Positions 1,005 to 64,000 of a DNA stretch of 64,000 nt are shown here, one piece after another. The DNA lies in contig NZ_BBBG01000005.1 in NCBI RefSeq assembly GCF_001315945.1, positions 1-64,000 of the forward strand, read 5' to 3'. How positions within the stretch are numbered: the stretch's first letter is position 1; every line of letters begins with the position of its first letter. The notes beneath the pieces were generated by a model, which saw only the letters and a list, made by a program, of their open reading frames with translations, had not been told where the DNA came from and did no database searches. A program made the position numbers and the translations under genes. Source of the DNA: Methanogenium cariaci JCM 10550 (lineage in GTDB: Archaea > Halobacteriota > Methanomicrobia > Methanomicrobiales > Methanomicrobiaceae).

Positions 1005-2250
1005 TTAGAATATGTTGTAGATCTGATCGTCGCCGGTGTCTGAAAGACGCTTGCGCTCAGCAGGTTCTTCAACAAGTGCAAGGATCGGAAGATCCATATT
1101 CACACCCGGTGCAAATCCGAACATCTTCTCCATCTCGACCTGCAGGGAGTGCATGAAGAGTGCATTCGGAATATCCATTGCACAGAGTTCTTCGCACTGT
1201 CCACAGTTTACACAGGAGTCAGATATGTGACTGAACCTGATGAGGTGGAACATGAAGGGCGGTGGCACCTGTCCCGGGGTAACCAGATGGGGTTTCCGGG
1301 TAGAACACTCGACACAGTAGCAGATTGGACAGTTCTCAATGCACTGGTAACACTTGATACAGCGTGAAGTCTCATCCATGATGAACTTCAGGCGATCTTC
1401 GCTCTCACCAAGTGCGCCGAACTGGGCTGCACGGTACTTGTCAGCGAGTTTGAACATTGCATTCTCGATCTTGCCGCGAATCTCAATGCCCTTGGGGGGA
1501 TTGGTGCTGCAGTTTCGATGGCTCCAGCCTTTGCTGCGCCCTCGATAAGTGCTGCTCCTTTGTCGCTACATACTTCAACGAAAGTTGCATTGCCTGCTTT
1601 GGGTCCAATGACTCCCCCCCAGTTACCGCATGCGATATCGCACTGGCGGGAACCTTTGTTTTACAGCGCTGACAGTTTGTACGGCGTCCGTATCCTGCTT
1701 CCTCGAGTTCATCAATGGAGATGCCCTTGTGCTCACCGTTCTCATCAAGAACAATGAACTGGCCTTTGTCGATCTCTTCCTTGACGATTGAGTCTGGGTC
1801 CATCTCGAACTTGTCTGCAATCATTTTCCGTGCAGTAATCGGAGACACCGATCCACCACAGTTGAGACCGATCATCACAACATTGTCAAGGTTGATCTGT
1901 TTCCTCTTTGCAAGCTCGTACATTGCCTTTGCGTCGCATCCCTTAAGGGTGACTGCAAGCTTCTCGTTCTTTGCTCCGTCAAGATATTTCTTGATGAGTT
2001 TTGGAAGAAGAACTGTACCACAGTGGAGTGATCCTGCACAGTCTGCGAGCTCAGCGGGGGGGTCTTTGATGAGGACAGGGGGGGTTGCATCGTAGATGTC
2101 GTATCCCTTCTTCACGGTAAGGACTGCATCGACCATGCCGCTTTCAAGAGCGTACTTGAGAAGTGCTGTGACTGCACCGCCACACTCACCTTTCTCAAGA
2201 ATGCCTGCATCATTTGCGGATGCATATATCATATCGCCTTTAGCTACCAT
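1005..2250 (-). CDS. fdhB: F420-dependent formate dehydrogenase beta subunit
   Basis: FdhB passes electrons from formate oxidation in FdhA to coenzyme F420. The N-terminal two thirds is FrhB/FdhB-like, and the C-terminal part carries ferredoxin-type cysteine clusters ([14 protein letters not shown] and [11 protein letters not shown]). The reading frame breaks near 1640 and at the six-G run at 1494. Joining the three pieces gives a continuous protein of about 415 residues, the usual family length, through CGNWG and the conserved [11 protein letters not shown] stretch. The start at 2250 has AGGAGG seven bases upstream and lies three bases from the fdhA stop, so the two are co-transcribed and translationally coupled. 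The breaks look like sequence errors, not decay. Confidence 0.93.
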
Positions 2251-2252
2251 TT

Positions 2253-4333
2253 TCAGGCCTCCTGGATCTTTTCAATCTTAATTGCACAGGCCTTGAACTC
2301 CGGAATCTTGGCGATTGGGTCAAGCACGTTGTTGGTCAGCATATTTGCTGCACACTCTGCAAAGTGGAACGGCATGAACATGACGCCCTTCATGATTTCA
2401 GAGGTTACCTTTGCAGGCACTTCAATCTCACCACGGCGGGTGATTGCTTTGACCATCTCCTGGTCCTTAATACCAAGTGCTTCTGCATCTTCGGTATTGA
2501 TCTCGATCCATCCGGTCGGGACTTCCTTTGCAAGGGTGTCTGAACGGCGTGTCATCGAACCTGTGTGCCAGTGCCAGAGACAGCGGCCGGTGGTAAACAC
2601 GAATGGATATTCATCGTCAGGTACTTCTGCGGGAGGTTTCCACTCGATTGCGTGCATGACACCCATACCGTCAGGGTGGGAGCACTTTTCGATGTGGAGA
2701 ACAGGCGTACCGGGGGGGTGTTCTTTTGTGGGACATGGCCAGTGAAGTGCCTCAGGTTTGTTGAGACGCTCGTAGGTCATTCCTCCATAGGAAGGTGTCA
2801 GTGATGCCATCTCGTTGAATACATCTTCTGATGTTTCCCATGCAAACTGGTCTGCATAGCCCATTGCTGCTGCAACGTCTGCAATGATCTTCCAGTCGAG
2901 TTTTGCCTGTCCGGGTGGCTCCTGTGCCTTTCTCCACATCTGAACACGGCGTTCGGTGGAGGTCTGGGTGCCGTCCTTCTCTGCGTAGCAGGTAGCGGGA
3001 AGTACCACGTCAGCGTGCTCTGCGGTCTCTGTCAGGAAAATATCCTGAACAACGACGAAATCAAGGTTCTCGAATGCATGCTCAACGTGGTGAATGTCGG
3101 GGGGGTCAGACAGGAATGGGTTCTCTCCCATAATGTACATTGCCTTGAGTTCACCTGGTTTGTCGGTTAAGACATCCATCATTGTTGTGACTTCGTATCC
3201 GTTCTGAGCTGCAGCGATACCATCGGGGGAATGCCCAGGCATCTTCGAATTTCTTGTGTGCAGCGGGGTCAATGACCTTCTGATATGCGGTGAACACAAC
3301 AGGGAGTGCTCCCATATCGCAGGCACCCTGCACATTGTTCTGTCCACGAAGTGCGTTCACACCGCCTCCACGCCTGCCGATGTTACCGGTGAGCATCTGG
3401 AGATTTGCAGTGGACTTTACGTTGTCGACACCAACGGTGTGCTGGGTGATACCCATTGAGTAGAGCAGTGCACTGGATTCAGCGGTTCCGATCCATTCTG
3501 CTGCGGTTCTGAGCTGTTCTGCAGGAATTCCTGAGAGTTTCTCGACATTCTCCGGCAGATAGGCATCTTGTAGAACAGTTGCTTTGAGCTCTTCATAGCC
3601 TTTCGCACGGTTTTCTACCCATGCCTTGTCTTCCCAGCCGTTCCGGATGATCTCTCCCATGATACAGTTCAGGATTGCGACATCGCTGCCTGATTTGAAC
3701 TGCATGAAGAGGTCAGCCTGCTTTCCGGTACAGGTTAAACGGGGGGTCAGCGTAGATGAGTTTTGCACCGTTCATCTTTGCCTGCATTACCCTGCGGCCA
3801 ATGAGTGGGTGCTGCTCAAAGGTGTTGGACCCGATGATAAAGACACACTTTGACTCTGCAATGTCTCCAATGGAGTTGGTCATTGCACCGGAGCCGAATG
3901 ATGCTGCAAGACCTGCAACGGTTGAAGCGTGGCAGAGACGTGCGCAGTGATCAATGTGGCGTGTTTTCAGTGCACCACGGGCAAATTTCATCAGAGCGTA
4001 GTTGTCTTCGTTAGAAGTACGCGCTGATGAGAGTACTGCGCACTCGTCAGGGGGGGTGTAGCTCTTAAATTTCTCTGCGATGAGGGCGTTTGCCTCTTCC
4101 CAGGTTGCCTCCACAAATTTGCCGTCCTTTTTAATGAGCGGCGTGGTGAGGCGGTCCTCTCTGTTCACAAACTCGTGGGCGTAAGTGCCTTTTGGGCAGA
4201 CCTTACCTTCATTGACGGGAGAGCGGTGATACGGGGGGGCGGTATCAACGACCTTGCCGTCTTTGACCACGAGGTTGAATGAACATCCTGTCCCACAGTA
4301 TGGGCAGGTTGTCTGAACGTATTTCATGTCCAT
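2253..4333 (-). CDS. fdhA: Formate dehydrogenase alpha subunit (molybdopterin)
   Basis: This is the catalytic subunit, oxidising formate to CO2 in the cytoplasm. An N-terminal 4Fe-4S motif starts at about residue 10 (CPYCGTGC). The bis-MGD catalytic site lies in CARLCHASTVAG, where the second Cys (about residue 134) stands in the place of selenocysteine in E. coli FdhF, so this is a cysteine enzyme. The start at 4333 is preferred over an upstream ATG because GAGGT lies seven bases before it and a TATA box is 40 bases upstream. The frame breaks near 3230 and at 3731-3736. Joined, the protein is about 690 residues and complete. Several single Pro positions of the family are doubled here by seven-base C runs. 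Confidence 0.94.
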
Positions 4334-4371
4334 TATCATTACCTCGAACACGTTCATTTTTATACTCACAG

Positions 4372-4380
4372 CATATAAAT
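4372..4380 (-). promoter_or_regulatory. TATA box of fdhAB
   Basis: On the minus strand ATTTATATG lies about 40 bases before the chosen fdhA start, which would put the transcription start about 12-15 bases upstream of the ATG. Sequence and spacing fit an archaeal TATA element. No clear BRE was made out. Confidence 0.6.
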
Positions 4381-4455
4381 GTAATCAAAAATCTAGGGAT
4401 TATTGGTGGAATTTAAGATCTGTGCCCTTTGTTATGAAAATGGTCGGTCATTTAT

Positions 4456-4486
4456 TGTTAATTAATTTTTTAGCATGTTAATTAAT
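4456..4486. repeat. Two TGTTAATTAAT repeats 20 bp apart, candidate operator
   Basis: TGTTAATTAAT occurs at 4456-4466 and again at 4476-4486. Each holds the palindrome TTAATTAA, and the copies are exactly 20 bp apart, about two helical turns, so a dimeric regulator could bind both on one face of the DNA. They lie about 120 bp upstream of the fdhA start in the gap to the next formate-block gene. The regulator is unknown. Confidence 0.5.
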
Positions 4487-4637
4487 GGATATTTACTTTT
4501 TCCAATCTCGTCATACAGGAGCGCATATCCCACATGATCTGGGGTTTTGTATCCCCCCCGTATCGACACAAAATAGGTGATGTAATTTGTTGAAAAGATG
4601 TTGTCAAAAATATGTATGAAATATCTCTGTCTTTAGC

Positions 4638-4984
4638 TTAGGTGTAATTCACTTTCTGACTGTATTTTTTTTCAAGACGGATGGCAATAACGGTGATTGT
4701 GGCCGCAAAGAGCGTCTGCATGATTATTCCTGTAGAAAATTCACCCCCCCATGGGTTGAAGATAATAATTGCGAAGAGTGGCACCAGCAGAGACACCAGA
4801 TCTTTTTTGGGTTTCAGGTAGCAATGCCACAGAGGATGAAAGAACTGATTATACATCCCCCCCCTATCCCGACAGAATTTACCTGTGAGAGTATGCCGAT
4901 GGCAATTCCTGCAAAGGCAATGATGGGAACGGATACCCAGGCATGTTTGGGCAGTTCTGGTAACGATGAAGTCTTGTCTGTCAT
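4638..4984 (-). CDS. Unknown small membrane protein of the formate block
   Basis: An ATG at 4984 opens a frame reading MTDKTSSLPELPKHAWVSV and a hydrophobic segment. The frame is broken by an eight-G run at 4857-4864 and resumes as MYNQFFHPLWHCYLKPKKD, ending at 4638. Joined, it is about 115 residues with three hydrophobic segments, a basic stretch in the middle and a charged C-terminus (KKYSQK). I do not recognise the family. Its place between fdhC and fdhA on the same strand suggests a role linked to formate uptake or oxidation, but this is context only. Confidence 0.65.
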
Positions 4985-5126
4985 AGTGATCTCCGATATG
5001 GTTTTTCCTTAGAAGAAATATGTCGTTTCGGTATTAAGAAGAGTGGGTTTACGCTTTACCAGACATTCGTTTTGTCTCTGGTTTATAAAATGTGAAAAAT
5101 TGTCTTAGCTTTAGTTGGGTTTGGAT

Positions 5127-5629
5127 TTATTTTTTGTCCTTCTTGCGGATGAGAACGGCATTTATCACCGGATCACCGACGACAACATATCGTTTGATGA
5201 CCTGGCCAAGGACTTCAACAACGTCATCTTTCTTGATGTCCTCTTTTGGTGTCGTGAACATCTTCACAGACATTAAACCACTTTTGTCAGCGATATGATA
5301 CTGCGGACGGTTCAGTGACTTAAAGAGTACACGTTCAACAACCCCCCCTTCAACCCTGACAATCTTACCAATGTCATTCGGCGGATGGCCGCCATCCTGA
5401 CCGACACTGCTTCCGCTTCGTAATAGGGAATCAGGTCGTCATACTGAGACTGGCTCATGTAGTTCAATGCAGTTGGAATGACAAGAAGCATTACCAGAAC
5501 CGGAACTGCCCAGAGAAGTGTGCGATAATCTTCTGAAAGGAAGACATATGCGAGTAAAATAAGGGTAAGGGCTATTACGAGTCCAATCTGAATGATTGAA
5601 ACCCTTACCGTTGTTCCTTTAATTTTCAT
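5127..5629 (-). CDS. Unknown membrane-anchored protein next to fdhC
   Basis: The frame starts MKIKGTTVRVSIIQ at 5629 with two predicted membrane helices in the first 55 residues. It breaks in the region 5340-5400 and continues in another frame through VFTTPKED-like and VVVGDPVINAV sequence to a stop at 5127. The joined protein is about 165 residues: two N-terminal helices and a soluble beta-rich C-terminal part ending RKKDKK. It begins nine bases after the fdhC stop on the same strand. I do not recognise the family. The soluble part could be a small beta-barrel, which is a guess. Confidence 0.65.
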
Positions 5630-5638
5630 TGTTCAGAA

Positions 5639-6502
5639 TTATGCCTGAATGTCTTTCTTGAATGAGACCCAGTAGATAAGAGCAACAAAGATCAGACCAC
5701 CGACAATGTTGCCGAGGGTGACGACGATGATGTTGTTTGTCCACATGGTGACCCAGGTCAGGTTTGCTAATTTTGCAGCACCGACGACATCTACCTGTTC
5801 AGCGGTAAGTGCTGCCTTTGTCAGCAGGCCTGCAGGGATGAAGTACATGTTTGCGACACAGTGCTCGAATCCGGAGGCAACGAACGCCATGATCGGGAAC
5901 CAGATACCGACAATCTTACCGATTGCATCATCTGCACAGATACCAAGCAGAATTGCAAGGTTAACAAGCCAGTTACAGCAGATAGCTTTACAGAATGCAG
6001 ACCAGAGTCCAAGTCCACCAGCGTAGCCTACCTTTCCTGCTGCAATTTTTACTGCAGTAAGACCGAATGCGGTTGCAGTTGCAGTGCTTCCGGTGATTGA
6101 GACCAGTGTCCAACGGACATCAGATATGCGAATACGAGTGAACCAATCAGGTTACCGACGTATACCCATACCCATAAATTCATGACTGCTGCCCAACTGA
6201 CTTTGTGTTTAAACGCTGCCATGGGGGCAAACATTGCGTCACCAGTGAAGAGTTCTGCACCGGTAAGCACGATGATAATCAGTCCTACAGGGAACACAGA
6301 TCCGAGAACTAATTTTGCGACACCTGCTCCGAGGAACGCTGCAGTGCCTGTTACACAGACGGTTGCGAGTGCTGCGCCCATTGCGATGTATGCGCCTGCC
6401 ATGAAACCACGCAGGAGCATATTCCAGGCCGGAAGCACATTTGCCCTTGCCTGCATCTCCAACCTTGGAGATGATTGTTGCTGGGGGGGGATGGAATACC
6501 AT
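5639..6502 (-). CDS. fdhC: Formate transporter of the FNT family
   Basis: FdhC is a pentameric inner-membrane channel of the formate/nitrite family. The joined sequence has six hydrophobic segments, the FNT signature LLRGFMAGAYIAMG near residue 35, and the second half-repeat with the conserved SGFEHCVANMYFIP stretch. The start at 6502 (MVFHPP) is preferred over the longer frame: it has GAGGTG ten bases upstream and matches FdhC N-termini. The frame breaks near 6445 (one extra G) and near 6115. Corrected length is about 287 residues, typical. It heads the leftward formate block, with a palindromic TATA region 50 bases upstream. Confidence 0.92.
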
Positions 6503-6549
6503 TTTTCTTTCACCTCATTTGGATTAAATTACCAAATAACACACAACTA

Positions 6550-6564
6550 CCTATAATTTATAGG
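6550..6564 (-). promoter_or_regulatory. Palindromic TATA region upstream of fdhC
   Basis: CCTATAA-T-TTATAGG is a perfect inverted repeat with seven-base arms centred on 6557. On the minus strand it contains TATAAATTA, placed about 50 bases before the fdhC start, so it probably serves as the TATA box. A palindrome overlapping the TATA element could also be an operator where a repressor blocks TBP. That second role is inference. Confidence 0.55.
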
Positions 6565-6899
6565 TGATTTAACGTCTGTATGAGTATATTAATAGCTTTC
6601 GATAATTTTTCACTGAAACAGGGAGTTGTTTGGCAATCCCTCTTTAACGTCTATGGGCAGAGTAAATGTAAATATATTGATTGTTAGTCAAATAAATCAG
6701 GGTAGTTTTACTAATGGAAGACATCACGCGGATTTCCCATATGTTTTCCTGTAATTGGAGGAAGATGCCCACGCACGAATGAAAAACAGCAAATAATTCA
6801 AGGTTAATTTAAAATTACGGTTCAGAATCTGACGGTAACTGAAAAATAAAAAAATGATCCATTCTGTTTTTTTACATTTCCGGAGACAATATGCAGATA
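6565..6899. other. A/T-rich gap between carbonic anhydrase and fdhC
   Basis: No convincing gene was found. The stretch is A/T-rich and lies between the stop of the carbonic anhydrase gene and the fdhC promoter. It may hold upstream regulatory sites for fdhC, but I see no repeat or palindrome apart from the one listed next to fdhC. Confidence 0.5.
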
Positions 6900-7485
6900 T
6901 CAGGCAATCTTCTCCAGTTTCCCGGTGTCAAGATCATAGAATAAACCATGGAGTTCTATTCTGCCCTCTTCTTCTGCACCCTTTACCGGGGGAATATGAT
7001 CTGAGGTTTTCCAGCTGAACCCTGATGTTCTCCAGTTCAATCTCCTTTTTCCGTGCGGCAAGGTCGGCACATTCTGCGGGAGTACCATATTCTCCTTCGA
7101 CTGTCTCTTTTACTTCCTGTGAATGTTTTAGCCATGTCGAAATATATTCCTCATCTGACATGTCAGCATCAAGGGCTTTCATGGCACCGCAGTCGGAGTG
7201 ACCACATATGATGATATATTTCACCTTCAGGTGGCCCACTGCATATTCAAGGACACATCCGAGGTTTGGATCGTTCTTTGCGACAATATTGCCGATGTTG
7301 CGGTGCACAAAGATCTCACCCATCTTTGCAGAGACAATGCGTTCCGGGTTTACCCGTGAATCAGAACATGCAATCCAGAGGGATTCCGGACTCTGGCTGG
7401 TTGCCAGTTTCTGATAGTGTTCATTGTCTTTCTGGAAATCGTTTTCAATAAACGCACGGTTCCCTTCTAAAAATTTCTCAACCAT
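6900..7485 (-). CDS. Beta-class carbonic anhydrase
   Basis: The enzyme interconverts CO2 and bicarbonate in the cytoplasm using zinc. The ligands and dyad are visible: CSDSR near residue 40, with Cys as zinc ligand and the Asp-Arg pair, and GHSDCG near residue 95, with His and Cys ligands. HRNIGN is conserved between them. The frame breaks near 6990; joining the pieces restores a C-terminus EEGRIELHGLFYDLD that is typical of the family. Length is about 195 residues. The gene lies upstream of fdhC on the same strand, which fits supply of CO2 or bicarbonate around formate metabolism, though it is about 400 bases from fdhC. Confidence 0.93.
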
Positions 7486-7577
7486 AGTATCACACCTCTG
7501 CGATAATGGGTAGTTGTCCGGCAGGATTATTTCTATATTATGATTTCAGATTCAGGGATGATTTGCACGTAATTTCT

Positions 7578-10387: not shown

Positions 10388-10514
10388 GGTTTCATCCCAA
10401 TTGATCGATGAAAGTCCTCCGGAAAATAAAAAGGTATGGTCACATCCGATGGTCAGGATGGTTGCCATGCTGAAAGAAAAGTGTATATCCGGCCCTGTCA
10501 AATAATTTCTACTC
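10388..10514. promoter_or_regulatory. Divergent promoter region copZ / ycaO
   Basis: This 127-base gap separates two divergent genes. On the plus strand GTGTATATCC at 10481-10490 sits about 30 bases before the ycaO ATG, suggesting a TATA box and a very short leader. On the minus strand TTTATTTT lies about 40 bases before copZ. The word CCGATGGTCAGGATGGT around 10447 contains a short direct repeat of GATGGT. It could be a copper-responsive site, but this is inference. Confidence 0.4.
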
Positions 10515-11747
10515 ATGAAATTGTCATCCTGTGTCAAAGGGTATTCTGTGGAGACGCACCGGACCGTTTCACCGGAGGATACGCTGAAGCGTATTGACTC
10601 ACTGGTGTCTCTGACGGGGGGGGTAACCCAGGTGGAGGACATCACTGATGTCGACCGGCTGGGCATTCCGGTCTTTACCTGTACACGCCGGGGGGGAATA
10701 AACGGAAAAGAATTCGTGCACAACGGCAAAGGAGCGACTCCCGTTGCTGCACGGGTCTCTGCCATGATGGAAACGATTGAACGGTATTCAGCAGAAGCGG
10801 ATGACAGGGAAATGATTGTGGGGGGGTCCTATAGTGAACTCTCCGGTGAATATCTCCTGCTTTCCCCCGGAAGAGATGATCCTGCCGGGATATACGGATC
10901 CAAATGCTGCGATCTCCTGGGTGTGGCACATGACATCATCCGGGACGAAGCTATCCTTGTACCTGCTCATGAGGTGTTCCATCCCCCCCTTGATGCGTCA
11001 TACGGGAATTTTATCCGGACGCATACCAATGGCATTGCGTCTGGCAATACACTAGAGGAGGCAGTTTTTCATGCACTCGCCGAACTCATTGAGCGTGATG
11101 CCTGGTCGCTTGCGGAGGTCACGCGTAATGCCGGGCCGGTTGTCGGGGATATCACCGACGAGCGCTGCCTTCAGGTCATAGAATCGTTCCAAAAAGAGGG
11201 CGTTGAGGTGATTGTCCGTGATATCACCAGTGATATTCGCCTGCCGACGATTGTGGCCATATGTGATGATGTGAAGCTGAAGGACCCTGCGCTGCTGTGT
11301 ACGGGAGCGGGAACCCATGTCTGCCCGGAGATTGCGGTGCTACGTGCCCTGACCGAGGTCGCACAGAGCCGTGCGACACAACTCTTTGTGGACGGGACAA
11401 AGCCGACGGGGGGGGCCGACATGCGGCGGGTGATGGGGGGGTATGACCGCACCAAGCGGATGAACAAACGGTGGTTTGCAAAGGATACTGAGTCTGTCTA
11501 CGGGAATATCGGGGGGGCCTTCCGGAGCGATGATTTCCTTACCGATATCGAATATGTTCTGGATGAACTGAAAAAGGCAGGGCTTGGCCGCTGTATTGTG
11601 GCAGACCTCACCCGCGAGGAGATCGGGGTGCCGGTGGTCCGGGTAATTGTACCCGGTCTGGAGGTACTTACCATGGATACGGACAGAATCGGACAGCGCT
11701 GCCGGGACGCTGCCAAAAACGGCTATCAGCCGGGCGTGTGGAATTAG
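10515..11747 (+). CDS. ycaO: YcaO-type protein, McrA glycine thioamidation
   Basis: In methanogens this YcaO protein uses ATP to activate the backbone amide and install thioglycine in the active site of McrA, together with TfuA and a sulfur source. The 410-residue frame is intact and shows the family landmarks DITDVDRLGIPVF, NGKGATPVAARVSAMMETIERYSAE, TNGIASGNTLEEA, ELIERDAW and RALTEVAQSR. Seven G or C runs of seven to eight bases fall inside it, each adding one Gly or Pro where related proteins have one (for example FHPPLD and MGGYDRTKRMN), and none breaks the frame. No TfuA gene is visible next to it in this window. Confidence 0.9.
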   Translation: MKLSSCVKGYSVETHRTVSPEDTLKRIDSLVSLTGGVTQVEDITDVDRLGIPVFTCTRRGGINGKEFVHNGKGATPVAARVSAMMETIERYSAEADDREMIVGGSYSELSGEYLLLSPGRDDPAGIYGSKCCDLLGVAHDIIRDEAILVPAHEVFHPPLDASYGNFIRTHTNGIASGNTLEEAVFHALAELIERDAWSLAEVTRNAGPVVGDITDERCLQVIESFQKEGVEVIVRDITSDIRLPTIVAICDDVKLKDPALLCTGAGTHVCPEIAVLRALTEVAQSRATQLFVDGTKPTGGADMRRVMGGYDRTKRMNKRWFAKDTESVYGNIGGAFRSDDFLTDIEYVLDELKKAGLGRCIVADLTREEIGVPVVRVIVPGLEVLTMDTDRIGQRCRDAAKNGYQPGVWN

Positions 11748-15437: not shown

Positions 15438-15509
15438 AGCCTCAGGAGGGAGTTGAACCCCCGACCTGCTGATTACAAATCAGCCGCTATACCACTAAGC
15501 CACTGAGGC
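15438..15509 (-). tRNA. tRNA-Thr (anticodon TGT)
   Basis: The reverse complement folds as a cloverleaf: acceptor GCCTCAG/CTGAGGC, a D-arm with AGTGGTATAGC, anticodon stem GCTGA/TCAGC around loop TTTGTAA (anticodon TGT), and a T-arm with GGTTCAACTCC. No intron is present and CCA is not encoded. It is the downstream member, in transcription order, of a tandem pair of the same isoacceptor. Confidence 0.95.
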
Positions 15510-15723
15510 GCTCTACCCTATTTGTGCTCAGGGGGTAAAAAAGATGGCGATATGATCTGGTTACCCGTATGAGTCTGAGATAAAAAGAATCCAAAAAGAA
15601 CCGAAGCCTCAGGAAGGAGTCGAACCTTCGACCTGCTGATTACAAATCAACCGCTATTCCACTAAGCCACTGAGGCGCCCATTTCAATCGGCTCTCAGGG
15701 GGTAAAGAATGTGGCGATATGAT
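15439..15723 (-). repeat. 167-bp tandem duplication carrying tRNA-Thr and its promoter region
   Basis: The tRNA bodies (from 15439 and 15606) and the sequence upstream of each in the direction of transcription repeat at the same 167-base offset. The upstream block, CTCAGGGGGTAAA followed by TGGCGATATGAT, is at 15527-15556 and 15694-15723. Conservation of this block, against divergence of the sequence between, suggests it contains promoter elements. Confidence 0.75.
15605..15676 (-). tRNA. tRNA-Thr (anticodon TGT), second copy
   Basis: A second threonine tRNA with the same anticodon loop TTTGTAA and the same acceptor stem. It differs at several positions (GTTGA/TCAGC anticodon stem with one G-U pair, GGTTCGACTCC T-arm). 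It lies exactly 167 bases from the first copy and shares its flanking sequence, so one arose by tandem duplication. Confidence 0.95.
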
Positions 15724-21202: not shown

Positions 21203-21311
21203 TGCTGTCGATGGGATCCGAACCCACGACCTCCAGATGTCTCAGATAAAGCGCTCCGAAATTGCTCAAACCCTATGAGTCTGGCGCCCTAACCAACTAG
21301 GCCACGACAGC
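21203..21311 (-). tRNA. Elongator tRNA-Met (CAT) with 35-nt intron
   Basis: Acceptor GCTGTCG/CGACAGC, T-arm GTGGGTTCGGATCCCA and anticodon stem CCAGA/TCTGG are clear. The anticodon loop reads CTCATA and is then interrupted by 35 bases (21239-21273 on the plus strand) before its last base. The insertion point after position 37 is the standard archaeal tRNA intron site, and an intron here in tRNA-Met is common in Euryarchaeota. tRNA-Ile2 also has a CAT gene anticodon, but the placement favours Met. Confidence 0.9.
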
Positions 21312-40243: not shown

Positions 40244-42735
40244 TCAGGATTCCAAAAGCTGTTCCAGAGCGTTCGTCTGTTCCTTTATTGCGGAGAAATT
40301 CTTCTTCATCTTTCCAAATGTGGCACTTCTGAGTTTCTTTCGGGCTTCCTGAACGGCTGCATTGTCCTGGTGGCCGAATCCTGCACGGGTGAGTGTCGAG
40401 CCTGCCTTTTCCAGGACCGAACGTTCCTCCTCATGATAGATGATGCCCCATGCAAGCCGTTCGTTCTTTTCGATGGCCTCTTGGTCCAGGGTTGCCTTCA
40501 CGTTCTTCATCGCAGTTTCAAAGTGCTTCTTTGTCACCCGCACGTTGGCCAGTGCGTCGCTGCGTTCAGTCTCATTCTTTTTTGCCATTGCCGTGATGAA
40601 TTCCCGCATTGCATTGAGTTTTGCCTCCCTGATGAGTGCCTCGATATCAGCACCGACATACCCTTCCGTTGCGTCCACCAGTGCCCCGGTATTGACGTCG
40701 CCTGCAAGGACGGATTCATCCCTGCCCATGTAAACGGCAAAGATTTTTTTGCGTGAATCTTTGTCGGGCGGGGGGGGCACATAGACCGCCCGGTCAAACC
40801 GTCCGGGGCGCATCATCGCATCGTCAAGCATATCCGGACGGTTCGTCGCACCGAGGATGGTGACATTGTTTAACTCTTCGAGCCCGTCGAGTTCGGTCAG
40901 GATCTGGCTGACCACGCTCTCGGTGACGTGGGACGAACCCTCGTAACTACCCCCCCGCCTCGGAAGCAGTGCGTCAATCTCGTCAAAGAAGATGATGGAA
41001 GGTGCTGCCTGACGTGCCTTCCGGAAGATGTCACGGATGCCTTTCTCAGATTCTCCGACCCACTTTGAGAGGAGTTCCGGGCCCTTTATGGAGATGAAAT
41101 TACATTCACTCTCGTTGGCGACTGCCTTTGCAAGCATGGTTTTGCCAGTACCCGGCGGGCCGAAGAGCAGGATGCCGGACGGTGGGCGGGTGCCAAGCCG
41201 CTCGAAGACCTCCGGGTACTTCAGCGGCCATTCAACCGCTTCCGTGAGTTCAGCCTTGATATCCTCAAGACCGCCCACATCATCCCAGGTGACCTCCGGG
41301 ATCTCAACAAGCACCTCGCGCATCGCAGAGGGCTCGACATTGCTGAGGGCCGCCTCAAAGTCATCGCGGGTTACCCGCAGGGTGTCGAGAATCGCAAGCG
41401 GTATCTCCTCATCCATCCGGATGCCCACCATGCTCTTGCGCAGGGCATGCATCGCGGCTTCCTTCACCAGAAGCGCGATGTCGGCACCGACAAACCCGTG
41501 AGTGGCTGCGGCGTAGGGCTTTAGGAACTTCTTCCGGCGGCGTTCCTCATCGCTGCTTCCTTCCCCCCCTTCCCCCCCTACATGATCCTCTTCGGTCAGG
41601 GTGACGGCTCAAGGTCCAGCGGGACGCCGCGGCTGTGGACCTGGAAGATTTCAAGCCGCCCTTTTTTGTCAGGGATGCCAATCTCAATCTCCCGGTCAAA
41701 CCGGCCTCCGCGCCTGAGTGCGGGGGGGTCGATATTATCCGGCAGGTTTGTCGCGGCAATGACAATGACCTGGCCCCGGCCCTTCAGACCGTCCATGAGG
41801 GAGAGGAGCTGCGCCACCACCCGCTGTTCGACCTCTCCTTTGGTATCTGCACGCTTGGGGGGGGCAATCGAATCAATCTCATCAATGAAGATGATCGTCG
41901 GTGCATTCTCCTGTGCCTCCTCAAAGACCTCCCTGAGTTTGCCTTCGGACTCGCCGTAGTACTTGCTCATGATTTCCGGGCCCGAGAGACTGATAAAGTG
42001 CGCATCTACCTCGTTTGCGACCGCCTTTGTAATCAGGGTCTTGCCGGTACCCGGCGGGCCGTAGAGGAGCACACCCTTGGGCGGTTCAATGCCCAGACGC
42101 TCAAATATCTCCGGGTGGCGCAGCGGGAGTTCGATCATCTCGCGGACCTGATCGAGTTCACGCCCGAGGCCGCCGATGTCCTCATAGTGAATGTCAGGTA
42201 CATCGTATGTCTTCTTTCCTTCTTTGGGACTGTATGGCTCTTCTTTCAGTAGCAGTTCGGTGTTCTGGGTCACAATCCCCACACCCTTTGGAGAGAGCTT
42301 TGTGATCACAAACGTGAGTGTGGTGCCCAGAAGGGCGACGCGGAACTGCTGGCCTTCGACAACCGGGCGGCCAGCGATTATTCGTGCAAACGACTGTTCT
42401 AATCCGCTGAGACGAATCGGGTGTGTCGGCTGAATTACCACTTTTGTTGCCTCGTGCACCTCGGCCTTCCGGATCCTGACCTTTTCATCAATGCCTGCAT
42501 GGGCATTGCCCCCCCGGATATTTCCGTCAATGCGGATGATGGCCCTCCCGCGGTCCTCCGGGAATCCCGGCCATATGATGGCTGCGGCCTTTTCACGGCC
42601 GGATATTTCAATCACATCACCGCTTCGCAGTCCGAGAGCGCTCATTACCTCCGTACTGATGCGTGCAATACCTCGTCCGGCGTCTTCATGTGCTGCTTCT
42701 TTTACGGTAACTTCTACTGGTGATGATGATGTCAT
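40244..42735 (-). CDS. cdc48: CDC48/VCP AAA+ ATPase
   Basis: A hexameric unfoldase of about 830 residues. An N-terminal double-psi barrel domain (residues 1-180) is followed by D1 and D2, each with Walker A GPPGTGKT and Walker B (FIDEID, FFDEID), and a C-terminal extension. The start at 42735 has GAGGAAA about ten bases upstream. One break near 41605 (between SPVTLTEE and the linker) splits D1 from D2. The linker between the domains contains two C7 runs, making GGEGGEG. It feeds substrates to the proteasome. Confidence 0.94.
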
Positions 42736-42870
42736 ATGAATAATTTCCTCAGAGTTATTTACCAATAGTAAAGGTTTGTTACTATATCAAATTTTCCTAG
42801 GGGGGGCGGCGACCTCAGGCGTGAATTAAATAAAAGGAGGAGGATGAGTTTTTTAAGAGATGGTATCCGA

Positions 42871-56134: not shown

Positions 56135-56494
56135 ATGTCCAGGATTGGTGTTGTAACCGGCCTTCTCATTCTTCTGGCTGTGATCGCCGTCTCTGCCGGG
56201 TGCCTCTCATATTCGATCGCTATGGTATCGTATGATGGGGATGGCGTGCATGTCGGTGTGGATAATAAAGGGGGGGACGCGAGGGATGCCGTGATGCAGG
56301 TAACGGTCTTTGATCTCTCTGACTTCAAACAGGTGGAGGTGGATAAAATCGTCCGTTCCGTGCATCTTGATGCAGGAACAAATGAGATCACATTTGACAC
56401 AGACCTGCAACCCGGTCCCTATCGCCTCTATATCTATATGATGGAAGGCGGGGGGGAACGACTTGGCTGTGTAATAAAAAACCTTGAGGTCTGA
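56135..56494 (+). CDS. Small lipoprotein
   Basis: A 119-residue protein with a signal peptide and lipobox (SAGC near residue 23) and a single extracellular immunoglobulin-like beta domain (VHVGVDNKGGDARDAVMQ, then YRLYIYMMEGGG). It ends three bases before the ade start codon, a short spacing that suggests one transcript. Function unknown. Confidence 0.72.
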   Translation: MSRIGVVTGLLILLAVIAVSAGCLSYSIAMVSYDGDGVHVGVDNKGGDARDAVMQVTVFDLSDFKQVEVDKIVRSVHLDAGTNEITFDTDLQPGPYRLYIYMMEGGGERLGCVIKNLEV

Positions 56495-56496
56495 AG

Positions 56497-58199
56497 ATGA
56501 CTTCGTTTATTCAGGCCGCCGCAGGTAAAGAACCCTGTGATATATTTTTTGTCAATGCCCGGGTATTCTGTCCGTTTACTGGAGAATGGGAAGATAATAC
56601 CTCATTCGGGGGGGTAAAAGACGGACGTGTGGCAGGGTTTGGAACCTACGCTGCTGAACAGACTGTTGATCTGCGGGGGGGAAACGCGTCATCCCCCGGT
56701 CTGATTGATGCCCATGTGCATATTGAAAGTTCTCTTCTGACCCCCTCCGAGTATGCCCGGGCCGTTATTCCGCATGGAACCACCACAGTCTTTGCTGACC
56801 CGCATGAGATTGCCAATGTCGCAGGCACGGCGGGGGGGGCTGAGGTATATGTTGCGGGAGCGTTCCCGAATTCCGCTGGATATCCGGCTGATGCTTCCGT
56901 CCTGTGTGCCGCCACCCCCCCGCTGGACCGGGGGGGTGGGGCGGTTCTCTCCTGCCGGGATCTCTCAGCCTTTGTCGGTGAAGAGGGAATTGCCGGTATT
57001 GGTGAAGTGATGAACGTGCCCGGGGTTCTCGCAGAAGACCCGGATCTGCTCTGCAAGATTGGCCTCTCTGCAGTTGTGGACGGCCATGCCCCCCCGCTGC
57101 TTTCCGGGGAAAACCTCTGTGCATATATCGCGGCAGGCATACAGAGCGACCATGAATGCACAACTGCGGCGGAGGCTGCAGAAAAACTCCAGCGCGGGAT
57201 GTATATTATGCTGCGTGAGGGGTCAACGGAGAAGAACCTCGGTGCACTGGCTGCTGTGGTGACGCCTGCCACCGCACCCCCCCGGTGTTGTTTTGCCACC
57301 GATGACCGGCATGCGGATATGCTGGCAGCAGACGGGCATATCGATGACTGCATCCGCAGGGCTGTTGCCGCGGGCATTGAACCGGAGACGGCCTACCGGA
57401 TGGCCACACTCTCTGCCGCAGGACGCTTCGGCCTGAACGACCGTGGTGCACTCTCACCCGGCAGGCGGGCCGACTTCTGTGTGATGGACGATCACGGCCC
57501 CCCCTGCACCGTAACGGATACGTACATCCAGGGAGTCCGGTGGACTGACCCCGGATACCGACGTCCTGAGATCCTGTCAGTGCCCTTTTCATGTGCCCCC
57601 CTGACAGAGGAGTCCATCGCCATCCACGGAGCAGGGAAGGCCCGTGTGGTGGGTCTGGTGCCGGGCCAGATTCTGACCCGCGAATTATCAGAAGAGGTGG
57701 ACGGGGGGGTCATTCTTCCCGATCCGTCGCGGGATCTCCTGAAGTTAGTTGTCTGTGATCGCTACCGCAGGGGGGGTGGTTGTGGTGTCGGTATTGTGAA
57801 CGGGTTTGGCATCCGGGACGGTGCCATCGCGGCGAGTGTGGCCCATGACTCCCATAACCTCATTGCCGTCGGGAGTGATGACGCCTCAATCATCCGTGCA
57901 GCAGAGCGGGTCATTGCCGCCGACGGCGGCATGGCGGCAGTCGCAGGGAACACCTCCGCCTTTCTGCCGCTGGAGTGCGGCGGCTGATGTCATCCCTCCC
58001 GTATGATAAGGTGGCAGCGTCTCTCCAATCCCTTGAGGCATGCATCCGGACAACCGGGTGTATTGAAAATCCGTTTATGTATCTCTCCTTCTGTGCACTC
58101 ACGGTCATTCCTGAAATCCGGGTGACCGAACGTGGGGGGGTGTTTGAAGTGGACGCCTTTGCCGATGTGCCGCTCTTTTCTTCCCCCCCCAAAAAATAA
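56497..58199 (+). CDS. ade: Adenine deaminase
   Basis: Converts adenine to hypoxanthine. The amidohydrolase core has SPGLIDAHVHIES near residue 69, HEIANV, GEVMNVPGVL, DGHAP, ATDDRH and AHDSHNLIAVG. The main frame is 496 residues and holds about thirteen G or C runs of seven or so bases, all in frame and each adding one Gly or Pro (DGHAPPLL, ATAPPRCC, HGPPC). One lost C near 57987 (GGCC to GGC) shifts the frame; the C-terminus continues MSSLPYDKVAASLQ to 58199, giving about 567 residues. Confidence 0.92.
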
Positions 58200-58202
58200 T
58201 AT

Positions 58203-58995
58203 TTAGAATATGCCCAAGGCGCCGGGGGGGGAATGATTCCCGCCACTACCATTCCCAGTATCAGGATGGGCTGGTGGATGAGGTATATCAGCAGGGAGTG
58301 CCTGCCGGCCGCTGCCAAAAGGTTGGTGATGGGGGGAGACAGGGCTGGCGAATCTGCCGCAGCGGATGCCCTTTGGGTAGAGGTAGGCCCCCGTTCCCAG
58401 CCCCCCCAGGAGCACCAGGCCGAACCAGGGTATGAGCGGTTCATAGTCAACAGAATAAAATCCTGCTGGATGAATGCCCAGCCACGCCAGCCAGATAGGG
58501 CCCGCCGTCCCGGTCACCACAAGACCCAGTGCCAGCACGATCACACCGGCGACGAGGTTATTTTTCTGCAGAGAAAAAAGAGCGGTGCCAGGCAGATGGA
58601 GAGGCCGATCAGGTGCAGGATACCGAAGAGGATGTATCCTTCCCCGATCACCTGCCAGGTGACAAGCTGATGCCGCCGCCGAGAGCGAGAATGAACAGAC
58701 CCCCCCTCATGAGAAACTTCTGCACGAGGGCCCGCCCCCCCTCCATGCCTCTTTGCATGGCACGTTCCCGGCTGATATGCAGGGACAGCCCGACCAGAAA
58801 GACAAAGGTGCAGGCGCAGGTCAGCGCAAACGCCCGCCAGAACCCACTGGTAACCGCCATGTCTGCCACGCCGAAGTAGACGAGGTCATACATGAGATGG
58901 TAGACGACCATCATCAGGATGGCAATACCGCGGACCGCATCAATCTCCCAGAATCTTGTTCCGGGTCTCTCCGGTATTTCTTCTGCCTGCTCCAT
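58203..58995 (-). CDS. DUF1624-type membrane acyltransferase-like protein
   Basis: A multi-helix membrane protein whose N-terminus, TRFWEIDAVRGIAILMMVVYHLMYDL, matches the heparan-alpha-glucosaminide N-acetyltransferase-like (DUF1624) family. The conserved RG and the His in YHLMYDL are present. The frame breaks near 58690 and 58335, and the stop at 58203 is one option that ends four bases from ade; frames near the C-terminus are ambiguous because of two C-rich runs. The substrate is unknown. Confidence 0.75.
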
Positions 58996-59040
58996 TCGTC
59001 TTCATTATTATACGGGGGGGGTGCAATACGCATTAGTGTG

Positions 59041-59929
59041 ATGACTCAGGGTGATGAGCATATAATTGAGGCAGCCGGTCGTGCACGGGTCGTTGTCAGA
59101 AACGGACAGGTGGTATCGGTCGGCCCGGCCCGTATTACATCCTGCCCGCTTGCGGCACGGTTCAGTGAGCCGGTGCGAACCTTTAGCGAAGAGGAAATTC
59201 AACGCAATATTGAAGGGCGCATTGCAACATTCGGCATGTGCACTCCTGAACGTGTCGTGGTTTCCGATGACGATTTCGTGCTCTTCGGGGCATCTGAACT
59301 GCTCTCATCCGCTCTCCGGTGTGGTATCATTGGCGCAGCGGTTATTGCCTGCGACGGGGGGGCAGGGACGGTTATTGCGACGTCTCCCCGTCTGATTCAG
59401 GGTATCGGGGGGGAAAGATGTCCGGGCTGGTATCGACGACGCCGATTCCTGCGGTGATTGACCGTATCGGTGAACACGGGGGGGGTATTGTGGTCTCCCC
59501 CCCTCATGATGCCGCACTCAGCGCCGAATCCGGGATGCGGATGGCTCTGGAAAAAGGTTTTCATGCACCGGCGGTGACCACCGCCTCTGCAGATGAGGCC
59601 ACCCTTCTCCGCGGACTCTGCCCTGCCGCCTTCATCGTGGCAGTGCATACCACCGGCACAACAGCGGAGGAGGCAGAGATGTTTGCCGCATCCTGTGATC
59701 TGATATTCCCGTGTGCGTCCCGTGCAATGTATGAGATTGCCGGGAAAAAGGCACTTTTGCAGGGCGCAAAGCCGTCCCGGTGTTTGCCATGACTGCAGCC
59801 GGAAAAGAGGTGGTGCTGGCAAAGATTGCCTCTGCAGAGGCACCGGTGGTGATCACCGGGCGTGCCCTGCCCTATTCGGAAGGGAAGGAACCGTCCCCCC
59901 CTCCAATGATTATTTTTTCAGGTGCATGA
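59041..59929 (+). CDS. Methanogenesis marker protein 8 (DUF2099)
   Basis: A conserved methanogen protein with DUF2099 features: VVVRNGQVVSVGPARITSCPLA, the CTPERVVVSDD stretch, GIIGAAVIACDG, KMSGLVSTTPIPAVID and GTTAEEAEM. The frame breaks near 59410 and 59772; joined length is about 295 residues. The exact function is not known. It converges with the HAD gene by 20 bases. Third methanogenesis-linked gene in the window after ycaO and mmp10. Confidence 0.85.
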
Positions 59930-60602
59930 TCTCCTGCAGATCCCCCCCGAAGGACTGCAGGGTGTAGTCCGGTCGTATTTTTGGATAGGGAATGCCGATC
60001 CAGTCGCCGTATTTCGCATAGACGGTTGTCATGCCTAAGAGATTGCCGGGTTCAATCTCCCGCTTCGGGCTGTCACCCACAATCCATGCCTCATGGACAT
60101 TACACTTCAGCATCCCTGCGGCCGCATGAAATATTTCCGGTTTGGGTTTTCTGACCCCTGACCGGTCAGGAGTCATTACGCCGTCAAAGTAGTCTCTGAC
60201 TCCTGTGGTGGCGAGACGTTTTTCCGCCTGACTGCTCTCAGCATCGGTGATGATTGCCATGGGCACACCGGCATCTGCAAGCATTTTGAGAGTTTCTTTC
60301 ACGCCGGGATATAGTTTGAGTGATGCCAGCTTCACCTCTTCGTAGACCGCGCATGCATCTTCATACAGGCGGGGGGGTTCAAAGATGCCTTTGTCTTCCA
60401 GAAAATCATGGATATTGTTGTGGTCTTCAAACCCGTGGGTGCCACTCATAAAATACCGGAAGAGTTCCATGCCGTCTCCACTGCCCGCAAAGTTTACGAC
60501 CGCCTCGCATGACTGTGTTTTGGCAAAATAAAAGTCATAGAGGGTGTTGTCCATATCAAAGAGGACATATTCCGGTATTGGTTCTGTCATTGTATCAGCC
60601 AT
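59910..60602 (-). CDS. HAD-superfamily phosphatase, pyrimidine 5'-nucleotidase type
   Basis: A HAD phosphatase of about 231 residues: motif I DMDNTLYDF near residue 17, motif II Thr/Ser in IITDAESS, motif III lysine in RKPKPEIF, and motif IV GDSPKREIEPGN. The long cap region between motifs I and II fits the pyrimidine-nucleotidase/SDT1 subgroup. Two possible starts (60602 and 60590). The frame is intact. Confidence 0.86.
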   Translation of the reverse strand: MADTMTEPIPEYVLFDMDNTLYDFYFAKTQSCEAVVNFAGSGDGMELFRYFMSGTHGFEDHNNIHDFLEDKGIFEPPRLYEDACAVYEEVKLASLKLYPGVKETLKMLADAGVPMAIITDAESSQAEKRLATTGVRDYFDGVMTPDRSGVRKPKPEIFHAAAGMLKCNVHEAWIVGDSPKREIEPGNLLGMTTVYAKYGDWIGIPYPKIRPDYTLQSFGGDLQEIMHLKK

Positions 60603-60715
60603 GTTCAAACGATCCCCTGTCAGTGTATAATAATTTGCGGAGTGGAGATAACTGGTTTGGTATTGCGGTAATACCGGGAAAAAGTTTATTGGTATTTTGT
60701 TCCCTTTCGTATACG

Positions 60716-61228
60716 ATGACTTACGGTACGAAAGACGGGGGGGCATTTTCTATTCGCAATCCGGTGCTCCTTATTGCCTGTGTGATTCTGACAAATCTCG
60801 CAGGCGTTGCCGGATCGTTTTTCACGGACACCGGGACGGGGGGGTCATGGTACGCAGATGAACTCATCAAACCATGGTTTGTTCCGCCGGATGAAGTCTT
60901 TCCTATCGCATGGACAACCATTTTTATTCTGATGGGGATTGCCCTGTATCTCGTTCTCGGGGAAGGTACCGGGAGAACGGACGTTCAGATTGCCGTATTT
61001 CTCTTCTTTTGCCAGCTCGGTCTCAATATTCTCTGGTCATATCTGTTTTTCACGTTGAAAAGTCCACTGTTCGGGTTTATTGAAATCATCATCCTCTGGA
61101 TTTTCATCCTTGCTGTGACCGTGAGTTTTTACCGGATCAACAAACGGGCAGGATATCTGTTTCTCCCGTATCTTGCCTGGGTATCGTTTGCCACGGTATT
61201 GACAGGCACAATATATCTGCTGAATTAG
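60716..61228 (+). CDS. tspO: TspO/MBR family protein
   Basis: A five-helix membrane protein of 170 residues. Typical TspO points are KPWFVPPDEVFPIAWTTIF near residue 52 and WSYLFFTLKSPLFGFIEIIILW. Members bind tetrapyrroles or cholesterol-like ligands; in a methanogen a tetrapyrrole role is plausible because of cofactor F430 and corrinoids, but this is inference. The frame is intact. Confidence 0.9.
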   Translation: MTYGTKDGGAFSIRNPVLLIACVILTNLAGVAGSFFTDTGTGGSWYADELIKPWFVPPDEVFPIAWTTIFILMGIALYLVLGEGTGRTDVQIAVFLFFCQLGLNILWSYLFFTLKSPLFGFIEIIILWIFILAVTVSFYRINKRAGYLFLPYLAWVSFATVLTGTIYLLN

Positions 61229-61316
61229 ATACCGGAATGTATATATATATACAAACTATCAATTGCTCTGAAAGGTAAACGTTACCTGTTACGCCTGAAC
61301 ACGGGTGCTGCCATCC

Positions 61317-63360
61317 ATGCCGAATAATTCAGCAGAGAATGAACTCCCCCCCCACCATTCCAAACGGAACTGATTGATACCGATATTTGTGAGTATTATG
61401 AATGTATGCGTCATTCTGATATTCCGGTCCTTTTTTCGGGGGAACCGGGAGGGTAATCTTTGCAAACAAGGCCTTCCACCGCACATATCAGTATCCTGAG
61501 GATTTTATGCAGGCGTCACCGGAGGTCAGTTCGATCATCTATCCCTGTGACCGGCAGGATGATGAGTCTGATGCGGCAGGCAGTGTTTGTGAGGTGTTCC
61601 GGCCGGGTGCTTCATCCGTGCGCATGTGGTTGACTCTGAGGGGAGTGGCGTCCCCCCCTCGCTGGTCTCGGTTTCAGAAATCCCCCCCGGTTCTCCCCCC
61701 CTTGCTGCCGCAACCATTTATCCCGGTTCTCCTGTCAGTTCTCAACCGGCGGGTCTGCATGAGGAAAAGACCGTTCGCACTCCCGCTGAAGGCCGGACAA
61801 TTCCGTATGAAATATTTGATACCTACCCTCATGCCGTCATTGTCCTTTCCGACACCGCATGCCGGTATTATAATACGGCAGCGCGGAAATTGCTGGGAAA
61901 AAATGCCTTTTTAAAGGATCGCCCACCAAAGTTCCGCCTTGCAGACAACGATTTTTCCGAACTGGTGAATTCCCTGAGAAGTCATACCGGGTCATCGGCT
62001 CCCGACTCCCGGATGATTGAAGATCAGCTTCGCATCAGCAGAACGCGCAGTATTGATGTGGAAATTCTGCTGGTTCTCTTACCCGATGATTTCCGGAATA
62101 TTCTGGCAGTATTCCGTGACATTACCTGCAAGAAACATGCAGAGTCTGAGCTTTTGAAACGCAACAACCAGCTCTTAATGATCAATGAAGTCATGAAAGT
62201 GGCAAACTCAGTCTACACGCTGGACGAGATGCTTGAAGAGATTCTTCAGACGGTTATCCGTGAGATGGATTTTGATCTCGGCTGGATCTACCTGCGGGAT
62301 ACCGATGCGAAATGGGCAACCATCGTTGCATCATCCGGTGTCCCCGAACGATTTGTCGAGGCCAGAATGCGGCAGAATGTGCTGGATTATCCGTTTAATC
62401 TGGTCTTTTTTGCGATGCAGCAGCACTACGTGGAGAACCTGCCGAATCATCCGCCCGGACCGATTGATTCAAAGGTGTTAGAAGAGGTGGATGCGCTCTC
62501 ATATGCCGGCATCCCCCCCTGATATCCGACTCCGTTGTTGTCGGTGCCCTCTACATCGGCAGACGGTCCTGCTACTCGTTCTCTCCCTTTGAGAAGAAGA
62601 CGCTGGAGATGATCGGTTCTGAAATCGGGAGTACGATTCTCCGGGGGGGTATCCTGCAGGACCGGCTGGAGGATGCCTATAGTGACGCAAGTCTTTATCT
62701 GGATATCATGCTCCATGACATCAAGAACGCAAATGCTGCGGTTCGGGGGGGATATTCCCAACGCCTGATGGACTATACCAGAGAGGGGGGGGCGACAGGT
62801 ACGCCACCAAAGTCCGGTGGCATACCCATCATATCACGGATATTCTCGACAATGTGACCACGATCCGGAGAATCACCGATGAGTCAACCGAGATGACCCC
62901 CCCCATCAATCTTGATGCCCTCATCAGTGCTGAAATTTCCCAGCATCCGGAGGGGGCGATCGCTTTTATGCGAACTGGATGTACGGTCTGGGCGGACGGT
63001 CTGCTCTCCGTGGTCTTTACCAATCTTATCCGAAACAGCATCAAATACGGCGGTTCGGGGGTGCATATCTGGATCAGCAGTGAGGAGGCGGACCATGAAG
63101 TGACCATCACGGTTGAGGATGACGGGCCTGGCCTGTCTGACGATAAGAAACTGCAGCTCTTTTCGCTCTTTCAGGAATCCACCACCGAACGGGGGGGACG
63201 CGGCCTTGGTCTGCATATCACCCGCCTTTTGATCCGGAGGTACGGGGGGAAGATCAGACCGGGCGACCGGATACCCGGCCGCCCTGAGAGTGGGCTTTCC
63301 ATCCGGTTTACGCTTCGCCTGGTGGAAGGGACAGAAGACGATGCGGAGATCCTGTATTAG
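61317..63360 (+). CDS. PAS/PAS/GAF sensor histidine kinase
   Basis: A soluble sensor kinase of about 680 residues joined from several frames. The start at 61317 (MPNNSAEN) is inferred because a PAS-like segment (VLFSGEPGRVIFANKAFHRTYQ) reads through two frame breaks before the internal Met at 61507. A second PAS domain is at about 61800-62150, a GAF domain at 62190-62640, a phosphoacceptor-like HDIKN at about 62717, and an HATPase with N box NLIRNSIKYGG, DDGPGL and GRGLGLHI. No membrane segment is seen. The response regulator is not in the window. Confidence 0.8.
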
Positions 63361-63395
63361 CTAAAGAGATAAAATTGGAAATCGTATCCGATTGG

Positions 63396-64000
63396 TTATT
63401 CAGACACGATCTTCTGCATTAAATCCATGATGCCCGCCTTTTCGTTCCGCTGCCTTCTCCGGGAACCGCCCATTCCCATTGGGGGGGCTGACCCGTAGAG
63501 TTCTTTGTTGAGCCGGTCATTGAGTTCGTCAAAGATCTGTTTGTAGGCGGGACAGTGCGGGTCGACTGCCTTTACCTCTCCTCCGGTTGGGTGATGGCAT
63601 TGTAGGGGGGGCAGCCGCCACGGCAGTACTTGATATGCGGGCATTCCTTGCAGTGCTCATCCACAAAGTCGCTGAAGGCGTGCATCAGTTTCCATGCTCG
63701 TGATTCGGCAAGGTCTGCTTTTGTCGGGCGGTCAGAGACATGGCCCATCACCCATTCCGGCATGCCCACAAACCGGTAACAGGGATAGATGCTGCCGTCC
63801 GGGCCGATGGCAAAGGTGTTGCCCATGCAGTTGTTGAAGGTGCAGACTGTCCCCCCCGTTCGGGTGAATACGCACTTGAAGAGGTCGTTGATGTTCATGA
63901 TCTCCGCGAGTCCAGGTTTTCCATGTATTTGTCGAGGAGGAAGATCAGGAGGTCTCCGTATTTCTCCGGTGCCAGCGCCCATTTTTCCGGCTCGTCGCCC
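63396..64000 (-). CDS. Radical SAM/SPASM protein, C-terminal part
   Basis: Runs off the right edge, so only the C-terminal part is seen. A SPASM-type Cys arrangement is visible: FNNCMGNTFAIGPDGSIYPCYR, then CPHIKYCRGGCPYNA, and a late DPHCPAYK. The pattern resembles anaerobic sulfatase-maturating and peptide-modifying radical SAM proteins with auxiliary Fe-S clusters. The frame breaks near 63900 and 63610. Its substrate would depend on the N-terminal part outside the window. Confidence 0.8.

What the first reader, a model, noticed from the sequence alone, without database searches (positions are those of the whole stretch)
1491..63860. Excess of exactly 7- and 8-base G/C runs across the whole window
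By hand count about 130 runs of six or more G or C occur in the first 30 kb, against roughly 14 expected for random sequence of about 52% GC. Most have exactly seven bases, some eight, few six, and I saw none longer than eight. A/T runs look normal. Runs of four and five still occur (5S rRNA at 183-186, fdhA near 3259), so it is not a simple rewriting of all runs. The runs fall on both strands and in both gene and intergenic DNA. The simplest reading is a systematic sequencing or consensus artefact, but the narrow length peak is odd for random error. A lineage-specific mutational bias that lengthens G tracts is the biological alternative.
Basis: partly seen in the sequence, partly recalled or inferred. 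Interest (0 to 1): 0.9.

Follow-up and report, generated by a model that had tools for sequence, protein, structure and literature searches.

The report
G/C-run length error in an assembly
Runs of four to six Gs or Cs in this methanogen's genome record are mostly written as seven or eight, even inside ribosomal and transfer RNA genes, so this is almost certainly a sequencing or consensus error and not biology.

Summary
The window has 183 G/C runs of exactly 7 and 44 of exactly 8, none longer, and too few of 4 and 5. The pattern is genome-wide in this Methanogenium draft: 8110 isolated 7-runs against 87-186 in six congeners; the next highest of 392 genomes in a phylum sample has 905. At aligned sites own 7-runs are +3 in 135 of 162, 8-runs +3 in 26 of 42, while own 4-runs agree in 93 of 96. 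A/T runs barely move. The same +3 sits in the assembly's only 16S gene (seven times), in 23S, and in both arms of the T-stem of the spacer tRNA-Ala; a working cell could hardly carry these. Of runs reading 4 or 7, 64% read 7, almost regardless of context or contig. Other one-base differences and fewer long frames fit an error-prone assembly. Best explanation: a consensus that misjudges G/C homopolymer length, probably long-read with a miscalibrated run-length caller. Platform and tool are inferred, not seen.

The parts
937..943 (.).
168..289 (+).
10506..11747 (+). YcaO-family open frame, 413 aa, holding seven runs of 7 or 8 (10616, 10690, 10820, 10983, 11408, 11435, 11511). The matches in three relatives span 1218 bases (406 codons) for the same 413 residues, so the own frame is longer by 7 residues, as many as it has runs
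40244..42786 (-). CDC48-type AAA ATPase gene, split into two overlapping frames; six runs of 7 or 8 could be aligned (40770, 40950, 41572, 41722, 41857, 42509)
41605..41605 (.). One-base deletion against all five relatives compared, at the junction of the two CDC48 frames
63191..63197 (+). G7 that is probably genuine: two relatives (G002, G006) also have seven; the third has an interrupted run of the same total length
1491..63860 (.). The whole window (1-64000) holds 183 runs of 7 and 44 of 8; the other contigs sampled show the same

Best explanation
The 7- and 8-base G/C runs are errors in the assembly. True runs of 4, 5 and 6 G or C were written longer, mostly as 7 or 8, at about two thirds of sites (4 to 7, 5 to 7 or 8, 6 to 8); most runs of 3 and A/T runs were left alone. 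Shown: the length shift at orthologous sites, its presence in RNA genes that could hardly tolerate it, its restriction to this assembly among those searched, and its near-independence from context. Inferred: that the source is a long-read consensus, most likely nanopore, in which a base-specific run-length caller or polisher misjudges G/C homopolymers (for example a decoder choosing the length of highest likelihood from a table trained on other data). Confidence: artefact of some kind 0.97; base-specific run-length caller on long reads about 0.5. The second and third rivals are other sources of the same artefact and share the 0.97.
For: (1) Orthologous sites: own 7-runs +3 in 135 and +2 in 16 of 162 aligned sites; 8-runs +3 in 26 and +2 in 9 of 42; own 4-runs offset 0 in 93 of 96. 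Uninterrupted runs only, by modal relative length: of 130 runs of 4-6 in relatives, 82 are longer in the own genome, 45 equal, 3 shorter. (2) A/T control: own A/T 4-runs equal in 151 of 152 sites, 5-runs 51 of 52, 6-runs 18 of 18. (3) RNA genes: the single 16S is 1488 bases against 1467-1468 in all 12 congener copies found; against G003 it has seven +3 insertions, each in a G/C run of 4 or 5. Over the operon locus L060 (end of 16S, spacer, 23S) against G002, 4-runs read 4 in 9 cases and 7 in 14. The spacer tRNA-Ala has GGGGGGG opposite CCCCCCC around its T-loop; its Rfam score is 38 against 72 for the G003 gene. RNA genes have no frame, so frame selection does not explain the +3. (4) Only this assembly: 8110 isolated 7-runs against 87-186 in six congeners; next highest of 392 in a phylum sample 905, in a genome with an ordinary spectrum. 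(5) Runs of 4 or more are not in excess: 626 per 100 kb against 591 in G006 of similar GC (495 and 453 in two relatives of lower GC). (6) Near-random choice: of 2167 runs reading 4 or 7, 64% read 7; context AUC 0.53-0.61; neighbour concordance 0.551 against 0.542 expected; 0.57-0.72 on every piece. (7) Other likely errors: 39 one-base deletions and 24 one-base insertions away from own G/C runs of 5 or more, each seen against two or more relatives; fewer long frames than relatives; completeness 59%. (8) A published nanopore run-length decoder works base by base and takes the length of highest likelihood; the authors call such a model sensitive to calibration errors (PMC7483855, passages and section 60).
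Against: No reads or second assembly of this strain were available, so true lengths are inferred from relatives with 77-87% mean identity and from RNA genes. Only one 16S is assembled; relatives have three or four, so normal copies could exist that are not in the assembly. The platform is not known. A/T runs look right, which is cleaner than I recall for long-read homopolymers. A jump from 4 to 7 that nearly skips 5 and 6 has no match that I saw in the listings of my searches. The shift is not always +3: +1, +2, +4 and a few others occur, and own 5-runs are +1 in 11 of 25 sites. Three own 7-runs face runs of 1 or 2 in relatives. Some of the one-base differences may be true evolution outside genes.
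Confidence: 0.97

Rival explanations
1. Real lineage-specific lengthening of G/C tracts by replication slippage or a repair defect.
For: Genome-wide, on both bases, and most shifts are +3, so many frames survive, e.g. YcaO with seven tracts and seven extra residues.
Against: Present in the only assembled 16S, in 23S and in both arms of a tRNA T-stem. Slippage should give graded lengths, but of 99 relative 4-runs 50 are 7 and only 5 are 5 and 1 is 6, and only one 9 was seen in 464 kb. The +3 occurs in RNA genes, which have no frame. Six congeners lack the excess. A/T runs are nearly untouched.
Confidence: 0.01
2. Flow-based sequencing error (454 or Ion Torrent) as the source of the artefact.
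For: Errors centre on homopolymers, and the assembly is a draft of 52 contigs. Of 17 strictly filtered one-base deletions 8 lie in G/C runs of three.
Against: Such errors are mostly plus or minus one and touch A/T too (recalled); here A/T runs agree with relatives in 151 of 152, 51 of 52 and 18 of 18 sites, the shift is mostly +3, and 8 of the 17 deletions lie in runs of one or two bases.
Confidence: 0.07
3. A post-assembly editing fault (a script or polisher that rewrote G/C runs), whatever the platform.
For: Sharp threshold at 4, saturation at 7-8, A/T spared.
Against: A fixed rule would not leave over a third of 4-runs unchanged with little context dependence, nor turn 5 into both 7 and 8. 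One-base differences elsewhere would need a second cause.
Confidence: 0.2

Closest known systems
Homopolymer length error in nanopore consensus assemblies
   Same: Errors sit in homopolymers and can break frames; PMC7483855 (passages seen) calls homopolymer run-length error the dominant error mode of Oxford Nanopore reads.
   Different: Here the shift is a jump to 7-8, mostly at G/C runs of 4 or more, with A/T runs nearly unchanged.
Run-length (repeat-count) consensus decoding as in Shasta, MarginPolish and HELEN
   Same: Length is called per base from a trained table by highest likelihood; the paper reports calibration sensitivity and streaks at preferred lengths.
   Different: That paper's streaks are at long runs, and its model was trained on human data. 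Nothing here shows that these tools made this assembly.
Phase-variable poly-G/poly-C tracts (Campylobacter, Helicobacter, Neisseria; recalled)
   Same: G/C tracts of about 7-10 bases.
   Different: Those are few and tied to particular genes (recalled); here they are everywhere, RNA genes included.

Membership tests
Systematic homopolymer consensus artefact | Run lengths differ from orthologues at otherwise matching sites, in one assembly only | tested here: met
Systematic homopolymer consensus artefact | Occurs regardless of function, including conserved RNA genes | tested here: met
Systematic homopolymer consensus artefact | Absent from independent reads of the same DNA | not testable with these tools
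   no reads available
Nanopore run-length decoding error | Platform and software of the assembly | not testable with these tools
Nanopore run-length decoding error | Base-specific length bias with low dependence on flanking sequence | tested here: met
Lineage-specific G-tract mutational bias | Graded length spectrum (steps of one) | tested here: not met
   two peaks at 4 and 7 with few 5 and 6
Lineage-specific G-tract mutational bias | Spares essential conserved RNA sites | tested here: not met
Phase-variable tracts | Few and tied to particular genes | tested here: not met
   genome-wide
Phase-variable tracts | Length varies within a population | not testable with these tools
   no reads available

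The most novel reading that the evidence does not exclude
A Methanogenium lineage in which a mutational process really adds about three bases to G/C runs of four or five, with ribosomes and tRNA that tolerate the insertions.
Probability: 0.01. Interest if true: 0.9.

Novelty: not a real feature. Interest (0 to 1): 0.1.

Why it matters
The genome stands for a species in a public collection. Its low completeness (59%, against 81-99 in six congeners), split genes, extra residues (glycine or proline where a G or C run lies in frame on the coding strand; inference) and odd 16S/23S could mislead work on gene loss, G-quadruplexes or rRNA trees. A simple test, a second peak in the G/C run-length spectrum, flags such an assembly.

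Tried and rejected
Rejected: slippage or a repair defect, phase variation, a fixed rewriting rule, and frame selection as the cause of +3 (reasons under rivals).

Led nowhere: a plasmid search with a P-type ATPase stretch gave only remote hits. A first rRNA alignment mixed the orientations of the loci and was replaced (then). Repeats inside the own sample are few and 88-95% identical: of 13 run pairs, nine have 4 or more on both sides (two 7 against 4, three 7 against 7, four 4 against 4) and four face a run of 1-3; too few to use. The two next highest genomes by 7-run count (G253, G236) and four others have an ordinary falling run-length spectrum in the pieces taken. Searches for a paper on this genome or on this exact G/C error found none that settles it; I saw listings only (in the listing was shorter than the number of papers found), plus passages of PMC9834061 and passages and section 60 of PMC7483855. 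PMC9834061 describes two Methanogenium bins of 98.7% completeness, which do not fit this genome.

Rows dropped before counts: alignments under 200 columns or under 75% identity or 72% (whose alignments reuse), alignments overlapping a longer one, and sites with poor flanks. Searches used five of the six relatives. Sites without a usable homologue: 21 of 183 (7-runs), 2 of 44 (8-runs), 9 of 105 (4-runs), 8 of 33 (5-runs), 3 of 12 (6-runs). In one search runs interrupted by a substitution in the relative were set apart as 'None'.

Full report
What was checked. In the 64,000-base window, G/C runs of 4, 5, 6, 7 and 8 number 105, 33, 12, 183 and 44, with none longer; composition predicts about 326, 85, 22, 6 and 1.5. 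A and T runs fall off steadily with no second peak. The first 30 kb hold 127 runs of six or more. Runs of 4 and 5 are depleted, which already suggests conversion rather than addition.

Where else. The window is the start of contig 5 of a 2.69-Mb, 52-contig genome with 59% completeness; the 7-base pattern is found 11,628 times in it, counting overlapping hits. Isolated 7-runs number 8110, against 87-186 in the six other genomes of the genus. The congener G002 has a contig of the same length as the Methanogenium marinum record found, so the genus is taken to be Methanogenium; the species is not known to me. In each of twenty 20-kb pieces from 20 other contigs, runs of 7-8 outnumber runs of 4-5. 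In a sample of 392 genomes from the phylum, own included, no other count comes near; the next is 905 (G253), and 35 kb of that genome have an ordinary falling spectrum.

What the relatives have. Pieces of three relatives (80-83% mean identity, covering 43-59 kb of the window) and shorter pieces of three others (77-87%) were aligned. At aligned sites the own 7-runs are 3 bases longer in 135 of 162 and 2 longer in 16; the rest are 0 (2), +1 (4), +5 (1), +6 (3) and -9 (1). Own 8-runs are 3 longer in 26 of 42, 2 longer in 9, +1 in 3, +4 in 3 and -2 in 1. Own 4-runs match in 93 of 96. Own 5-runs match in 13 of 25 and are 1 longer in 11. Counting uninterrupted runs only, by modal relative length: the relatives' 4 becomes 3 (3 sites), 4 (39), 5 (5), 6 (1), 7 (50) or 8 (1); 5 becomes 5 (5), 7 (15) or 8 (7); 6 becomes 6 (1) or 8 (3). 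Three own 7-runs face runs of 1 or 2. A/T runs barely move: own 4, 5 and 6 are equal in 151 of 152, 51 of 52 and 18 of 18 sites; the one own 7 is equal and the one own 8 faces 6. One G7, at 63191, is 7 in two relatives as well and is probably genuine. The density of runs of 4 or more is near that of a relative of similar GC (626 against 591 per 100 kb; 495 and 453 in two of lower GC). So old runs have been lengthened rather than new ones made.

RNA genes. The assembly has one 16S gene, on contig 40. It is 1488 bases long, against 1467-1468 in the 12 other copies found in the genus. Against G003 it has seven +3 insertions, each in a G/C run of 4 or 5. The 23S gene has the same, including ACCCCGGGG written as ACCCCGGGGGGG in what I recall to be near the peptidyl-transferase centre. 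Not every run is hit: over the locus L060 against G002, nine 4-runs stay 4 and 14 read 7. The tRNA-Ala between the genes has seven Gs facing seven Cs around its T-loop; its Rfam score is 38, against 72 for the relative's gene. I judge that these are not the sequences of working genes. Unassembled normal copies cannot be excluded, as three relatives hold three or four 16S genes. As RNA genes have no reading frame, the +3 there also cannot be explained by selection for frame.

How the choice is made. Among 2167 runs reading 4 or 7, 64% read 7. Ten bases on either side predict this barely (AUC 0.53-0.61), neighbours are nearly independent (0.551 against 0.542), and every piece shows 0.57-0.72. 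That is close to a coin toss per site, as expected where a caller has two competing length estimates.

Frames. One extra codon per run leaves many genes open: the YcaO frame at 10506-11747 holds seven runs and is seven residues longer than its matches of 1218 bases in three relatives. Shifts that are not a multiple of three, and one-base differences elsewhere (39 deletions and 24 insertions away from own G/C runs of 5 or more, each seen against two or more relatives; some may be true evolution), break frames. CDC48 at 40244-42786 is split at a one-base deletion at 41605. Frames of 500 aa or more number 1.7 and 5.2 per 100 kb in the two own samples, against 12.5-16.2 in three relatives; frames of 200 aa or more are not reduced. 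Of 17 strictly filtered one-base deletions, 8 are G/C runs of 3 in the relative, that is 3 written as 2, and 8 are runs of one or two.

Mechanism. The facts fit a base-specific run-length call that reads some 3-runs short and most 4-6 as 7-8, for G and C only. One published nanopore decoder tabulates observed against true lengths for each base and takes the true length of highest likelihood; its authors say that such a model appears sensitive to calibration errors (PMC7483855, passages and section 60). I infer a fault of this kind; neither platform nor software of this assembly was seen. A polisher fault and a flow-based platform remain possible.

Verdict. A real pattern in the record, not a feature of the organism. 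No paper on this exact error turned up in the listings, which cover open-licence papers only and were partly truncated.

Noticed in passing
window 15438-15509 and 15605-15676, minus strand: Two tRNA-Thr genes with the same anticodon (TGT) 95 bases apart.
   Followed up: no
window 21203-21311, minus strand: A 109-base tRNA match in Rfam that ARAGORN does not call; possibly an intron-bearing or inflated tRNA.
   Followed up: no
window 1-102 and contig C40 (L048, L060): The contig starts inside a 23S gene, and the assembly holds one 16S while three congeners of one or two contigs hold three or four: the rRNA operons are probably collapsed or broken at contig ends.
   Followed up: partly
L048 1737-1740: The spacer tRNA-Ala also lacks one G near its 5' end, against relatives G003 and G002.
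   Followed up: partly
G253 (phylum sample, L069-L073): 905 isolated 7-runs in about 1.5 Mb (57% GC in 35 kb taken) with an ordinary falling spectrum: rich in G/C runs, not the same artefact.
   Followed up: partly
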